Positions 46,167 through 49,604 of a stretch of 64,000 bases of DNA are shown here, piece by piece. Within the stretch, counting starts at the first letter, position 1. Each line of letters starts with the position of its first letter. The stretch is from Alicyclobacillus acidocaldarius subsp. acidocaldarius Tc-4-1 (lineage in GTDB: Bacteria > Bacillota > Bacilli > Alicyclobacillales > Alicyclobacillaceae): positions 1,034,765-1,098,764 of the forward strand of contig NC_017167.1 of the NCBI RefSeq assembly GCF_000219875.1, written 5' to 3'. The notes beneath the pieces are model-generated. The model was not told the DNA's origin, made no database searches, and worked only from the letters and a program-made list of their open reading frames with translations. The position numbers and the translations under genes are program-made.

Positions 46167-46643
46167 GTGGAGGGCGAGGGGTTTGCGCCAGCCAAGCATC
46201 TGACCTTCGATCCCGCCCTGCGCGATCCCGCGCCGCACTCGGTGCTCGTGTTTGCGAGGCTGTTCGACGGCTGCGTGTGGGTTCGCCATCACGCGCGGGG
46301 CTGGGAGCTTCCCGGGGGCAAGGTGGAGCCGGGTGAGACGCCGGACGCCGCAGCGCGGCGCGAAGCGTTTGAAGAGGCGGGCGCTCTGCTCGAGAACCTC
46401 GACTGGGTTGCCCAGTATACCATTGTCCTGCGCGACGGCTCCGAGGCGAGCAAATGGGTGTATCTCGCCGACGTGCACGACGTGAAGGCTCGGCCCGCGA
46501 CGTCGGAGACCACGGCGGTGCGCCTCGTGCCTTGGATTTTGGGTCTACAAGGGTTCCCGTGCACCGATCGCAGCCCGTTTGTTCAGGATGACGTATTCGC
46601 GAGGCTTTTTTCGGAGGTTGCCTCGCGTTTTCAAGTGAGGTGA
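46167..46643 (+). CDS. Nudix hydrolase (YtkD/MutT-like)
   Basis: A 158-residue Nudix protein with a perfect box [44 protein letters not shown] and WVYLADV recall YtkD, which cleans 8-oxo-dGTP from the nucleotide pool. The GTG start has a weak AGGTGG site. It sits between the DUF212 gene and a HepT-like gene in one transcription unit. Confidence 0.85.
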
Positions 46644-46647
46644 GACG

Positions 46648-47079
46648 GTGTTTCTGACAAAGGATCATAAGCGGCAAATTGAGGCGTGGCTCGAAGCCCT
46701 CAGCGCTCGGGCCGCGTGGTTGGAGGATTTGGCCGAGCGGGAGGACGCGTGGGAAGAAGATCTCACGTGGCAGCTCGCCGCCGAGCGCGCGCTGTGGACG
46801 AGCGTCGAGTACGTCACCGACATCGCCTCGCTCATCATCGACGCGCTTGTGATGCGCGATCCCGGCGGCTACGCCGATATCGTCAAAGTCCTCGTCGAGG
46901 AAGAGGTCCTCGACGCTCGGTGGTTCGATGTCTTCACCGGCGTGATCGACTTCCGATCTCGCCTGCTTCGCGATCACGCCCGCATCACGCCGAAGGACGT
47001 GCGCGAGGCCGTCTCGCGCTACGCGGATCTGTTCGCTCCCTTCATGGACCAGATTCGCGCGTTTTTGCGCAACCACTAG
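46648..47079 (+). CDS. HepT-like/DUF86 protein
   Basis: A 143-residue all-helical protein resembling DUF86/HepT (YutE-like): RALWTSVEYVTDIASLIIDA and FRSRLLRDHARITPKDV. HepT nucleases or AMPylation targets carry RxxxxHxY; here FRSRLLRDHAR has the Arg and His but not the Tyr. The usual MNT antitoxin partner is not next to it, so it is probably not a toxin-antitoxin pair. GTG start. Confidence 0.65.
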   Translation: MFLTKDHKRQIEAWLEALSARAAWLEDLAEREDAWEEDLTWQLAAERALWTSVEYVTDIASLIIDALVMRDPGGYADIVKVLVEEEVLDARWFDVFTGVIDFRSRLLRDHARITPKDVREAVSRYADLFAPFMDQIRAFLRNH

Positions 47080-47606
47080 ACGTCGTCGAGATCGTCCGGG
47101 ATGTACACGGTCACCCGGCAGTTGCGCTTCACCCCAAACTGCAAGGCATGTTTCCGCGACGGCATGAGCACGTCGATGTGATGGCCTCGAATGGCACCTC
47201 CCGTGTCTTCCGCGATTCGCCAGCCCACGCCCTCGATGTAGAGCAGGCTGCCGTAGGGGATCACCGCCGGATCGACGGCAACGGTCCGTCCGATCACGGC
47301 GGGCCGCCCGGTGCTCGTCACCCCGAAGCCGGGATCGCCAGGGTCCTTTCCGGTGGAGAAGCGATCCAGGTTGTAGGCCGTGACGACAAACGTGTCGGTG
47401 AGCTTCCGACACCGGCGAATGTCGTAGCTGCGGCCGAACACCGTGATGGCCTCCGGCTCGGATCGCCACGACACCGACTGCGCGTGGGCGGTCGCGTGCG
47501 CCTGCTTCGCCACCGTCGTTCCGCGCGCCGGCGCGGCGCTCGAGCACCAACAAGCGGCTGCACAGACGAGTGTGAGGCACATACCTATGCATCGGGATCG
47601 GTTCAT
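47076..47606 (-). CDS. Secreted 3D-domain protein (YuiC/YocH-like)
   Basis: A 176-residue exported protein: signal sequence, then TDTFVVTAYNLDRFSTG, VAVDPAVIPYGSLLYIEGVG and EDTGGAIRGHHIDVLMPS, the 3D (double-psi barrel) domain of MltA/YuiC/RpfB lytic enzymes. The conserved aspartates (DTG, DVL) are present. Likely role: peptidoglycan cleavage. It is convergent with the HepT-like gene (4-base overlap). Confidence 0.85.
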   Translation of the reverse strand: MNRSRCIGMCLTLVCAAACWCSSAAPARGTTVAKQAHATAHAQSVSWRSEPEAITVFGRSYDIRRCRKLTDTFVVTAYNLDRFSTGKDPGDPGFGVTSTGRPAVIGRTVAVDPAVIPYGSLLYIEGVGWRIAEDTGGAIRGHHIDVLMPSRKHALQFGVKRNCRVTVYIPDDLDDV

Positions 47607-47667
47607 GGTTGTAAGATGTGCATAGAAGGGCAAATTATGCAACGCAAGGGGGCTATAGAATGGATGG

Positions 47668-47701
47668 GCCCGGCCGAAGCGAATGGTCATCGCGGCCGGG
47701 C
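47668..47701 (-). terminator. Hairpin after the NlpC/P60 gene
   Basis: A 9-bp GC-rich stem (47668-47676 with 47693-47701) and a 16-base loop begin 12 bases after the NlpC/P60 stop. There is no T-run, so the call is moderate. Confidence 0.5.
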
Positions 47702-47712
47702 GACTGTAGGGT

Positions 47713-48255
47713 TCAGGTGTACATTTGTCGAACAGCCGACAGGTGCCGATACCAGTACGATCCCGGCCGCACGCTGAGGAAGCCGACGCGTCCTAGCCCG
47801 CCGCCGCACTGGATCATTTCTCCGTTGCCTGCGTAAATCCCGACATGCCCGCCGTCGTCGAAGATGAGCAGGTCGCCAGGCTTCAGGTCGCTGTACGGGA
47901 CGCGCCAGCCTACTTCGAGGTATTGAAGGCGTGACGACGTCGTAAAGCGATACCCGAGAGCGTGGTGATAGACGTACTCCACAAAGTTCGAGCAGTCGAA
48001 TCCGTACTGACCGCGGTCTTCGTTGTGCCCCCAGATGTAGGGCGTGCCGATCTTGCTTTCGGCCACCTCCAGGACCGCCTGCGTTTTCTGTTGGTAAGAC
48101 GCGTTTTCTGAAGCGAGAGGTCGAATGGACGGATCGAGATGAACCCCAGGGGGCAACGAAGTTTGCGCGAGGGCAGTGCAGCCGCCCATGGTCAGCGTTG
48201 CAAGAGTGGCGGCCGTCGCGGCAATCGCTCCAAGGGACGTTCGTTTCGGCAGCAT
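47713..48255 (-). CDS. NlpC/P60 cell-wall endopeptidase, probable lipoprotein
   Basis: A 180-residue protein: signal with a possible lipobox (TMGGC), then an NlpC/P60 domain with the catalytic Cys in YGFDCSNFVEYVY and His in DGGHVGIYAG. The third position is GEMIQCGGG, where most members have His. It would cut peptidoglycan peptides. AGGAGGAG lies before ATG 48255. The gene is preceded by a ydaO-type c-di-AMP riboswitch, a known control of such enzymes. Confidence 0.88.
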   Translation of the reverse strand: MLPKRTSLGAIAATAATLATLTMGGCTALAQTSLPPGVHLDPSIRPLASENASYQQKTQAVLEVAESKIGTPYIWGHNEDRGQYGFDCSNFVEYVYHHALGYRFTTSSRLQYLEVGWRVPYSDLKPGDLLIFDDGGHVGIYAGNGEMIQCGGGLGRVGFLSVRPGSYWYRHLSAVRQMYT

Positions 48256-48264
48256 GCTTCTCCT

Positions 48265-48395
48265 CCTGTAGCCTCCGAGGTTAGTTGACGGGTTCGGGTG
48301 GAAGAGTCCCCCTATGCGCACGAGGCGCAATTCACCCCTGGGCATCAAGCCCGCTTGTCCCCCGTACCTGCGTTTCGCAGGATTCGGCGTAATCT
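48265..48395 (-). promoter_or_regulatory. ydaO/yuaA-type c-di-AMP riboswitch
   Basis: On the minus strand the leader of the NlpC/P60 gene holds the conserved core in order: CGCCGAATCCTG, a short hairpin, GGTACGGGGGAC, CCAGGGGTGAA, AGGGGGACTCTTC, CCCGAACCCGTCAACTAACC and TCGGAGGC, then AGGAGG and the start. These are the ydaO consensus blocks. This RNA class binds c-di-AMP and usually turns off cell-wall hydrolase genes. The call is from remembered consensus; an Rfam search would settle it. Confidence 0.88.
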
Positions 48396-48641
48396 TGGTG
48401 TGAGTGGTGCACTGAAAGCGTAACAGGAAGCGCAAGCTCATTCATTACGAGAATCATGGATCAGGCGGAGGATGAATGCCTTAAAAGGAAGAGCCACAGG
48501 TAAATTGGTTTCTTCGATACGGTTCCTTGTGGAAAGTCAAAGGGTGATCTTGGAGGTTGGGAACTTCACGGAACTCCGCGGAACATCATCAAGCGACTGA
48601 CGCGAAGGGACATCGGGACATCATACGGGGGCCAAAGCAAA

Positions 48642-48664
48642 GGCCCCGACTCGACGTCGGGGCC
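48642..48664 (-). terminator. Terminator after the repeat-containing secreted protein
   Basis: A perfect 9-bp stem (48642-48650 with 48656-48664) and a 5-base loop start 16 bases after the stop on the minus strand and are followed by TTTGCTTT. Bases 48396-48640 upstream of the riboswitch hold no gene that I can support. Confidence 0.7.
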
Positions 48665-48680
48665 ATGGAGGAACTGCGCT

Positions 48681-49511
48681 TCACGCGTTGGAAGCCGTAT
48701 TGGAACCGGTTGTCGACGATGTCGGTTGCCCGCCTGGCAGATGGGCGCCTGAAGGATGGGGGAGCGTGCCGTTGACCCAGTCCGTGATCCACGTGTCGAT
48801 CCGCCCCAATATCGCCTGTGCCTCGCTCGCGGTGATCTTTCCATTGGAAACGGCTTTTTGGATGTCGGCTTGCGCCGCATTCTCGAGGTCGGAGATGAGC
48901 GTTGACGTGGAGACGCCCTGTGCCGCAGCTATCTCGGCGAGGGTTTGCCCCTTACGCAAATCGGCGATGAGCGACGAGGTCGACAGGTGCAAGTCCTGCG
49001 CGGCAGTCGCAATCAACTCTCGGCGCCACACGCCGGCTCCGCGCGGACGCACCTTGTCCCATCCAGCCGGCCACTTTCCGTTCACCCACGCTTGAATGGC
49101 GAGATCGACCTTCGATTCGATTTTCGAAGCTTGTGCGCTCGTGAGGGTTCCGTTCGCAACGTCGGCTTGAATGTCTGACTGGGCCTTGCTTTCGAGATTC
49201 GAGATAAGCGTGGACGTAGAGATACCCGCTTGCGCGGCGAGCTGTTCCATCGTCTTGCCTTCTCGCCAGTCCTGGCGAAGAGCGGTTGGGGTGAGATGGA
49301 GTTCCTGTGCCGCTTCGCTCACAAGGTCTTGCCTCAGCGTGCGGAAGATTTGACGATCCGCGCGCACCGGCGATCCCGATTGCTCGCTGGCTGCGCGCAC
49401 AGATTCGTGACCGCGGTCAACCGCTGCAAAGACCACACCGCCGCCCGCGGCGAGGGTCGACAGCACAGCGGCAGAACCAACAAGGGCCTTCCGGTGCAGG
49501 AACATTGGCAT
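48681..49511 (-). CDS. Secreted protein with an internal duplication
   Basis: A 276-residue protein with a signal sequence and two copies of an about 85-residue helical repeat (about 66-150 and 168-250). Both contain LxxxAAQ-LHL, a GKT/GQT segment, GxSTSTLIS-LE, AQxDIQ, NGx-T and WVNG. It ends in a Ser/Thr-rich tail. I do not recognise the family; the repeat recalls short helical domains of Bacillus exported proteins. GGAGG is 8 bases before ATG 49511. Confidence 0.6.
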   Translation of the reverse strand: MPMFLHRKALVGSAAVLSTLAAGGGVVFAAVDRGHESVRAASEQSGSPVRADRQIFRTLRQDLVSEAAQELHLTPTALRQDWREGKTMEQLAAQAGISTSTLISNLESKAQSDIQADVANGTLTSAQASKIESKVDLAIQAWVNGKWPAGWDKVRPRGAGVWRRELIATAAQDLHLSTSSLIADLRKGQTLAEIAAAQGVSTSTLISDLENAAQADIQKAVSNGKITASEAQAILGRIDTWITDWVNGTLPHPSGAHLPGGQPTSSTTGSNTASNA

Positions 49512-49604
49512 CGTTGCCACCTCCGTACCGAAACTGGAATAAGCGCGGTACGGTTGTAACGTAACACACCATGCTTGAAATCCGCTTGAAGCTTGGCTCG
49601 TGCC

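What the first reader, a model, noticed from the sequence alone, without database searches (positions are those of the whole stretch)
48265..48395. c-di-AMP riboswitch controls an NlpC/P60 gene
All conserved blocks of the ydaO class are present in the leader of the NlpC/P60 gene. c-di-AMP, tied to osmotic and cell-wall stress, would then govern this hydrolase; the neighbouring 3D-domain gene (47076-47606) could be read through from it, as no strong T-run terminator separates them.
Basis: partly seen in the sequence, partly recalled or inferred. Interest (0 to 1): 0.55.

Follow-up and report, generated by a model that had tools for sequence, protein, structure and literature searches.

The report
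c-di-AMP switch blocking hydrolase translation
The leader of a cell-wall-cutting enzyme gene holds a real c-di-AMP riboswitch whose knot carries the ribosome-binding site, so the messenger probably switches off translation of that one enzyme rather than transcription.

Summary
RF00379 (c-di-AMP riboswitch) matches window 48399-48255, minus strand, full length, 77 bits (gathering 38). The match ends on the start codon of a secreted-looking NlpC/P60 hydrolase.

Its mechanism differs from the usual terminator switch. No terminator-like site lies between aptamer and stop codon. Pseudoknot P7 pairs loop CUCUUCC (48306-48300) with GGAGGAG (48266-48260), the Shine-Dalgarno sequence, so ligand should block ribosome loading. 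Fourteen of 15 genus genomes have an SD-fused aptamer before an NlpC-like gene. In NlpC-linked leaders loop and tail co-vary (0 of 2000 shuffles). Corynebacterium glutamicum nlpC is the precedent.

Read-through to the 3D gene is doubtful: hairpin and promoter-like block are conserved between the genes.

Beyond the finding: 37 of 49 SD-fused genus copies precede NlpC- or SleB-like hydrolases, 0 of 51 others. A core change, CAGCUAAC to CAACUAAC, marks the hydrolase type; searched alone in 398 Bacillota genomes it gives 33 loci outside this genome, 30 SD-fused, against 12 of 85 sampled CAGCUAAC loci. Five actinobacterial hits and two Heliobacterium leaders keep G, so it marks a lineage, not the mechanism.

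The parts
48255..48399 (-). c-di-AMP riboswitch aptamer, full RF00379 match including the 3' tail
   Evidence: 77.0 bits, model 1-134 of 134
48386..48389 (-). P1, 5' strand CGCC
   Evidence: structure line of the alignment
48270..48273 (-). P1, 3' strand GGCU (outermost C-U pair not standard)
   Evidence: structure line of the alignment
48300..48306 (-). P7 pseudoknot, loop strand CUCUUCC
   Evidence: 7 pairs with one G-U; P7 duplex -11.4 kcal/mol
48260..48266 (-). P7 pseudoknot, tail strand GGAGGAG, which is the Shine-Dalgarno sequence of nlpC
   Evidence: duplex with a typed 16S 3' end -11.0 kcal/mol
48285..48285 (-). aptamer-core A (CAACUAAC) that marks the Bacillota hydrolase type; the Rfam consensus has G
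48365..48365 (-). A of the non-standard A.G end pair of P2 (partner G48275); 56 of 61 non-hydrolase copies have a standard pair here
   Evidence: structure line
47713..48255 (-). NlpC/P60 (C40) hydrolase, 180 aa, signal-peptide-like N-terminus (by eye), ATG at 48255-48253
   Evidence: PF00877 65.1 bits; motifs DCSNF and GHVGIY read in the translation
48642..48664 (-). terminator-like site behind the upstream gene (48681-49520), so the nlpC transcript probably starts between it and the aptamer (inference)
   Evidence: 9 pairs, 8 G-C, T-rich tail
47668..47701 (-). hairpin between nlpC and the 3D gene (9 G-C pairs, 16-nt loop), no T-run
   Evidence: G+C hairpin kept in six genomes, own included; a different stem at the same place in three more distant ones
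47612..47641 (-). promoter-like block before the 3D gene (TGCATA, 17 nt, CATCTTA), 5 nt from its conserved ATG
   Evidence: for conservation; the likeness to a sporulation (SigG) promoter is recalled, not tested; the sigma-70 scan does not list it
47076..47606 (-). 3D-domain gene downstream, start codon without an SD
   Evidence: PF06725 63.6 bits

Best explanation
A c-di-AMP riboswitch that works as a translational off-switch for one secreted NlpC/P60 cell-wall hydrolase. When c-di-AMP is high, the aptamer folds around two ligands (known for the class) and its P7 pseudoknot closes; the tail strand of P7 is the Shine-Dalgarno sequence GGAGGAG, so the 30S subunit cannot load. When c-di-AMP is low, P7 opens and the hydrolase is made. 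Shown here: class membership, the position of the SD inside P7, the absence of a terminator-like site, conservation of the arrangement, loop-tail covariation. Inferred: ligand binding, direction (off), size of the effect, and that mainly the first cistron responds.
For: RF00379 at twice the gathering score. Start codon 15 nt after P1, SD within P7. No terminator-like site on the minus strand from aptamer to nlpC stop. The genome encodes two diadenylate-cyclase domains (PF02457, 154.4 and 101.1 bits). Fourteen of 15 genus genomes carry an SD-fused aptamer before an NlpC-like gene. Of 55 NlpC relatives in genome contigs, 24 have an RF00379 hit upstream on the match strand; in 24 of 24 a start codon lies 12-20 nt after P1, and in 23 of 24 the best-scoring P7 overlaps the SD. 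Matched loop-tail pairing beats shuffled pairing: 84 distinct pairs z 12.2, SD-fused 40 z 8.1, NlpC-linked 28 z 5.1, 0 of 2000 shuffles each. P7 (-11.4) and SD:anti-SD (-11.0 kcal/mol) are about equally strong, as a switch needs. C. glutamicum nlpC: with raised c-di-AMP only the first reporter fell and transcript did not change; its authors proposed CTCC pairing with the RBS GGAG (PMC9960051, passages).
Against: No binding or expression data. One strongly conserved core nucleotide differs (G to A, 48285) and the P2 end pair is A.G, so affinity or specificity could differ. Folding without pseudoknots gives an open SD for a 183-nt stretch with this leader (0.73-0.95 unpaired over GGAGGAG), 0.69 for another cut of the same leader, but a median of only 0.35 over the 56 SD-fused copies, so the free state is not equally open everywhere. 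The shuffle control does not remove relatedness. Heliobacterium NlpC leaders have only 4 P7 pairs. In 10 of 56 SD-fused copies, many of them SleB-like, P7 ends beside the SD motif chosen by the script instead of overlapping it. For Streptomyces rpfA transcription termination is reported (PMC10117811, passages).
Confidence: 0.82

Rival explanations
1. Transcription attenuation as in B. subtilis kimA (ydaO): ligand-bound aptamer lets an intrinsic terminator form before the gene.
For: Mode of the class prototype (PMC9960051 introduction, passage). Some copies that are not SD-fused do carry a strong hairpin plus T-run before the gene, e.g. four before Usp-like genes.
Against: The aptamer match ends on the start codon, so there is no room for a terminator; the scan finds none on the minus strand from the aptamer to the nlpC stop. 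The 24 NlpC-linked loci have the same tight spacing.
Confidence: 0.05
2. Off-switch, but through Rho-type termination, polymerase pausing or faster mRNA decay after ribosome exclusion, so that transcript level also falls.
For: S. coelicolor rpfA: no canonical terminator, reported as Rho-independent, yet transcript rises without the riboswitch (PMC9960051 discussion; termination reported in PMC10117811).
Against: In C. glutamicum nlpC transcript did not change. No Rho or decay site was tested here.
Confidence: 0.1
3. The riboswitch also sets the level of the downstream 3D-domain gene through a shared transcript.
For: Same strand and about 110-130 bp apart in 9 of 15 genus genomes; no T-run terminator between them.
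Against: Conserved hairpin between the genes, another stem with a short T stretch in A. hesperidum-type genomes, and a conserved promoter-like block directly before the 3D ATG. Translational control should not reach a second cistron.
Confidence: 0.12
4. The hydrolase-type aptamer has changed ligand or response (core G to A, A.G pair), for instance another cyclic dinucleotide or an on-switch.
For: The core change is in 44 of 48 hydrolase-linked copies and 1 of 61 others.
Against: The other conserved blocks fit RF00379. SD-fused hydrolase aptamers with the ordinary G exist (Heliobacterium; Kocuria), so the change is not needed for this arrangement. A review table of ligand contacts (PMC7288161, passage) could not be mapped onto this position with certainty.
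Confidence: 0.06

Closest known systems
Corynebacterium glutamicum nlpC (cg2402) c-di-AMP riboswitch, PMC9960051
   Same: ydaO-type aptamer before an NlpC/P60 gene, no canonical terminator, translational effect, proposed pseudoknot between aptamer and RBS GGAG (passages)
   Different: Other phylum, operon of seven genes; its core letters were not seen. In the five hits from three Actinomycetota plasmid records examined here the core is CAGC, not CAAC
Bacillus subtilis kimA (ydaO) c-di-AMP riboswitch
   Same: Same aptamer class
   Different: Acts by a terminator and controls a potassium importer (as told in PMC9960051)
Crystallised ydaO riboswitch of RNA-Puzzle 12 (4QLM), PMC5393176
   Same: Its 108-nt sequence has the same loop-tail pseudoknot (CUCCUUCG with CGAAGGAG, read by eye from the sequence)
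   Different: CAGCUAAC core; the passages read do not treat the tail as an SD
Streptomyces cell-wall hydrolase leaders (rpfA; S. lividans SLIV_14380 NlpC/P60), PMC10117811, PMC8079986
   Same: ydaO-type leader before secreted hydrolases, NlpC/P60 among them (passages)
   Different: Transcription termination reported for rpfA

Membership tests
c-di-AMP riboswitch (RF00379, ydaO/yuaA) | Covariance score above the gathering score over the full model | tested here: met
   77.0 against 38 bits, positions 1-134 of 134
c-di-AMP riboswitch (RF00379, ydaO/yuaA) | Conserved core letters | tested here: inconclusive
   Nearly all conserved blocks match, but the conserved G of CAGCUAAC is A and the P2 end pair is A.G
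c-di-AMP riboswitch (RF00379, ydaO/yuaA) | Pseudoknot between the P6 loop and the 3' tail (present in a crystallised member, not part of the Rfam structure line) | tested here: met
   7 pairs here; covariation over the set, 0 of 2000 shuffles
c-di-AMP riboswitch (RF00379, ydaO/yuaA) | Binds two c-di-AMP | not testable with these tools
   Needs in-line probing or calorimetry; the genome does encode two DAC domains
Translational (SD-sequestering) riboswitch | SD is part of a ligand-stabilised helix | tested here: met
   GGAGGAG 48266-48260 is the P7 tail strand; stabilisation by ligand is inferred from the class, not tested
Translational (SD-sequestering) riboswitch | No terminator between aptamer and gene | tested here: met
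   (consensus scan)
Translational (SD-sequestering) riboswitch | Ligand changes ribosome binding, not transcript level | not testable with these tools
   Needs toeprinting, reporters, RT-qPCR
NlpC/P60 (C40) peptidase | PF00877 above its cut-off, catalytic Cys and His motifs | tested here: met
   65.1 against 23 bits; DCSNF and GHVGIY read in the translation, motif roles recalled; the third catalytic residue was not assigned

The most novel reading that the evidence does not exclude
Bacillota hold an old, separate subtype of c-di-AMP riboswitch made for cell-wall hydrolases: a CAACUAAC core, often an A.G end pair in P2, and a P7 whose tail is the SD. It reads the same messenger at the level of translation, perhaps with an affinity or speed of its own, while the ordinary CAGCUAAC type in the same genomes controls mostly transport and other genes, in most cases without SD fusion. 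One messenger would thus set turgor and wall cutting through two tuned forms of one aptamer. Only the association is shown; a tuned response is conjecture.
Probability: 0.3. Interest if true: 0.62.

Novelty: new variant of a known kind. Interest (0 to 1): 0.42.

Why it matters
It explains how c-di-AMP could hold back enzymes that cut the wall while turgor is high, without a protein regulator, and gives comparative support to the RBS pseudoknot that was only proposed for C. glutamicum. The core-letter rule (A-type before hydrolases, G-type mostly before transporters and other genes in Bacillota) lets an annotator guess platform and target from the aptamer alone, and is testable with one base change.

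Tried and rejected
Rejected: terminator switch at this locus (no room, no site). Rejected as chance: the single sigma-70-like match at 47731-47703 (0.5 expected by shuffles), because its second hexamer is not kept in relatives. Rejected: the CAACUAAC core as a requirement for translational control, since Heliobacterium (L146, L189) and Kocuria (L319, before a C40 peptidase) have SD-fused hydrolase leaders with G, four hydrolase-linked copies among the 48 (G001, G004, G016, G019) have G, and five of the 12 G-type phylum loci called SD-fused look secreted by eye (L265, L273, L277, L286, L295). Not decided: whether the core letter touches a ligand; a contact table in PMC7288161 could not be mapped.

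Led nowhere: a WalR or SigI site before nlpC judged by eye; two structure papers of 2014 and the 2013 class paper are not held; a paper search for ydaO with Alicyclobacillus gave one paper on KdpD, seen in the listing only. My first loop-tail script used a wrong anchor and its numbers are replaced.

Limits of the counts: the SD-fused rule (SD-like motif and a start codon within a set distance of P1, ORF of at least 75 or 80 aa) is loose. Of 49 SD-fused genus copies, 12 had no phmmer hit to the two query hydrolases: three look like LysM/SLT proteins (Pfam counts SLT in three), one seems a start called in the wrong frame before a SleB-like gene, six lie in what look like leaders of MFS genes (two match MFS families), one is Usp and one MreB-like; these last eight may be wrong start calls. 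In one search I set the hydrolase label by hand (48 of 109: the 37 phmmer ones, the three LysM/SLT and the misframed one, and seven loci from other families that I had chosen because they lie beside NlpC matches). The G-type sample is 30 fetched by the tool plus 55 that I picked from the other listed places, about one per genome; the A-type set is all 33 places outside the own genome, but holds close relatives (22 distinct N-termini among the 30 SD-fused). Three A-type loci (L220-L222, one family) gave no SD-fused start by the rule although P7 pairs. Patterns were exact, so other core variants are missed. Fisher values ignore relatedness.

Full report
WHAT IS THERE. cmscan puts a full-length RF00379 match at window 48399-48255, minus strand, 77.0 bits against a gathering score of 38, E 3.9e-16. 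The last base of the match is the A of the ATG (48255-48253) of a 180-aa NlpC/P60 protein (PF00877, 65.1 bits). The nearest named relatives of that protein in genome contigs are in Alicyclobacillus sendaiensis, mali and fructus (90-94%, which may leave out the own genome), so the window is Alicyclobacillus; the species is not told. The own genome has four RF00379 copies and two diadenylate-cyclase domains.

ANATOMY. From the sequence: P1 ends at 48270; then ACA, then GGAGGAG (48266-48260), then AAGC-ATG. GGAGGAG is complementary to CUCUUCC (48306-48300) in the P6 loop, 7 pairs with one G-U. The same loop-tail knot can be read in the crystallised ydaO RNA (sequence in PMC5393176, passages read). 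The knot's tail strand is the SD. The SD is mostly open in the pseudoknot-free fold of this leader (0.73-0.95 unpaired, or 0.69 in another cut), but only 0.35 in the median over 56 SD-fused copies. On the minus strand of 46500-49600 the terminator-like sites lie at 48664 (before the leader), 47412 (inside the 3D gene) and 49453/49452; none lies between aptamer and nlpC stop.

COMPARATIVE TEST. RF00379 occurs in 15 of 15 genus genomes, 100 places, and in 58 of 61 genomes of the wider sample, own included. I examined all 100 genus places plus nine from other families, seven of them chosen because they lie beside NlpC matches (four own copies and one other came as loci); all 109 could be anchored. 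By rule, 49 of 100 genus copies are SD-fused and 51 are not. Of the proteins after the fused ones, 37 of 49 match this NlpC protein or the own LysM/Hydrolase_2 protein by phmmer; of the others 0 of 51 do (Fisher 2.7e-17, relatedness not corrected for). Pfam counts: fused, LysM 19, Hydrolase_2 17, NLPC_P60 17 of 49; not fused, ribosomal L19 14, ABC 10, MFS 9, Usp 5 of 51. Fourteen of 15 genus genomes have an SD-fused aptamer before an NlpC-like gene; G004 does not.

Genome contigs: 24 of 55 NlpC relatives have RF00379 upstream on their strand. In 24 of 24 the start codon is 12-20 nt after P1. In 23 the best-scoring P7 overlaps the SD; in L150 (Alicyclobacillus suci) the scorer preferred another pairing although CUCCC with GGGGG is possible; in Heliobacterium chlorum and mobile P7 has only 4 pairs. 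Loops and tails change together (CUCUUCC/GGAGGAG, UUUCUUCC/GGAGGAAA, AUCCC/GGGAU, ACCUC/GAGGU, CCUUUG/CAAGGG). Against shuffled partners the mean pairing score is higher in every set: 84 distinct pairs 15.49 against 12.15, z 12.2; SD-fused 40, z 8.1; not fused 44, z 6.6; NlpC-linked 28, z 5.1; 0 of 2000 shuffles each. Relatedness is not removed by this control. P7 is therefore general to the class here (with exceptions, see Noticed in passing); what is special is that its tail is the SD. In 10 of 56 SD-fused copies the script's SD lies just beyond P7, e.g. the SleB-like type AACGAG-AGGATG.

A CORE LETTER THAT MARKS THE TYPE. CAACUAAC instead of CAGCUAAC is in 44 of 48 hydrolase-linked and 1 of 61 other copies (the label was set by hand). 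The end pair of P2 is A.G in 37 of 48 hydrolase-linked copies and in none of the other 61. I then searched by pattern, blind to genes, in 398 genomes of the phylum: CCGAACCCGNCAACTAACC in 29 genomes, own included, and CCGAACCCGNCAGCTAACC in 112. All 33 A-type places outside the own genome were examined: 30 SD-fused, with 22 distinct N-termini; Pfam LysM 21, Hydrolase_2 15, NLPC_P60 14 of 33 proteins. Of G-type places 85 were examined: 12 called SD-fused, of which five look secreted by eye and the rest doubtful; most frequent families are radical SAM (23 of 84 proteins), amino-acid permeases, octopine-dehydrogenase-like proteins and sulfate transporters; 3D-domain proteins 5; NLPC_P60 is not among the 25 of 65 families shown. 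Fisher 4e-15 for SD fusion by type. P7 beats shuffles there too (z 5.5 and 8.3). The A.G pair is weaker as a mark outside the genus: 11 of 33 A-type and 3 of 85 G-type. Before this, a longer A-type pattern in 149 genomes gave four places outside the own genome, all RF00379 (71.5-97.2 bits) and all SD-fused before hydrolase-like proteins judged by eye; the same four places recur in the 33. Against a general rule: all five RF00379 hits in three Actinomycetota plasmid records have CAGC; one of them, in Kocuria rosea, ends 5 nt before an annotated C40 peptidase and its tail GGGAGG can pair with its loop UCUCCC by eye (the genes after the other four were not examined). Heliobacterium has G. So the letter marks a Bacillota subtype, not the mechanism.

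THE 3D GENE. It follows nlpC on the same strand within about 110-130 bp in 9 of 15 genus genomes. Between them six genomes, own included, keep a G+C hairpin with a changing loop, and three others a different, longer stem with a short T stretch. TTGCATAA and, some 15 nt on, ACAT-N-TTACAACCATGAAC are kept in the six, and a looser form in all nine, with no SD before the ATG. I read this as an own promoter with a very short leader; the likeness to a SigG promoter is recalled and untested. Since the switch acts on translation, a joint transcript would not carry the control anyway (inference; precedent).

LITERATURE. PMC9960051 (passages): C. glutamicum nlpC riboswitch, translational, RBS pseudoknot proposed, stated there as not shown before for the class. 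PMC8079986 (passages): S. lividans ydaO leaders before secreted hydrolases, one NlpC/P60. PMC10117811 (passages). PMC9481103 (passages): 77 c-di-AMP doublets. I saw no report of the core-letter rule, or of these Alicyclobacillus riboswitches, in the listings of searches. The 2013 class paper and two 2014 structure papers are not held, a third 2014 paper was not asked again, and the 2010 survey was not looked up, so this is weak evidence of absence.

VERDICT. A clear class member by aptamer, in an arrangement with one experimental precedent, and one of a Bacillota hydrolase subtype that I have not found described.

Noticed in passing
L001 1501-1633 (own genome C1:1286356-1286488): A c-di-AMP riboswitch of one loop type stands upstream of rplS (L19) in 15 of 15 genus genomes (L19 matched by Pfam in 14); in 11 of 15 a terminator-like hairpin lies about 210-240 nt after P1, and in the own genome a small ORF precedes it. 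What it controls is unclear.
   Followed up: partly
G006:C34:89487-89632, G003:C36:89043-89188, G011:C3:86647-86791, G012:C1:3739942-3740087, G005:C4:17448-17592, G004:C1:786427-786571, G008:C1:964896-965040, G007:C85:62388-62533: RF00379 aptamers before ABC-transporter ATPase-like genes without a convincing P7: the P6 loop is different and the tail shows no good complement. Possibly another platform.
   Followed up: no
L035, L036, L037 (G008, G007, G004): Tandem c-di-AMP aptamers about 350-500 bp apart before Usp-like genes, the second with a terminator-like hairpin. Doublets of this class are known (PMC9481103, passages).
   Followed up: no
L090 (G001:C1:4338300-4340150): Two divergent c-di-AMP aptamers about 150 bp apart, one before an NlpC-like gene, one before an MreB-like gene.
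   Followed up: no
L002 1501-1900 (own genome C1:708908-709040) and relatives: Aptamer with SD and ATG directly behind it, but the frame is a short or doubtful ORF before an MFS gene: leader peptide or wrong start call.
   Followed up: partly
window 47606-47690: The longest 3D reading frame starts in the intergenic hairpin; conservation points to ATG 47606, with no SD, as the start.
   Followed up: partly
window 46648-47079 and 48681-49520: A HepT-like protein (PF01934, 48.9 bits) convergent to the 3D gene, and upstream of the riboswitch a protein with internal repeats seen in its translation and only a weak HTH_40 match.
   Followed up: no
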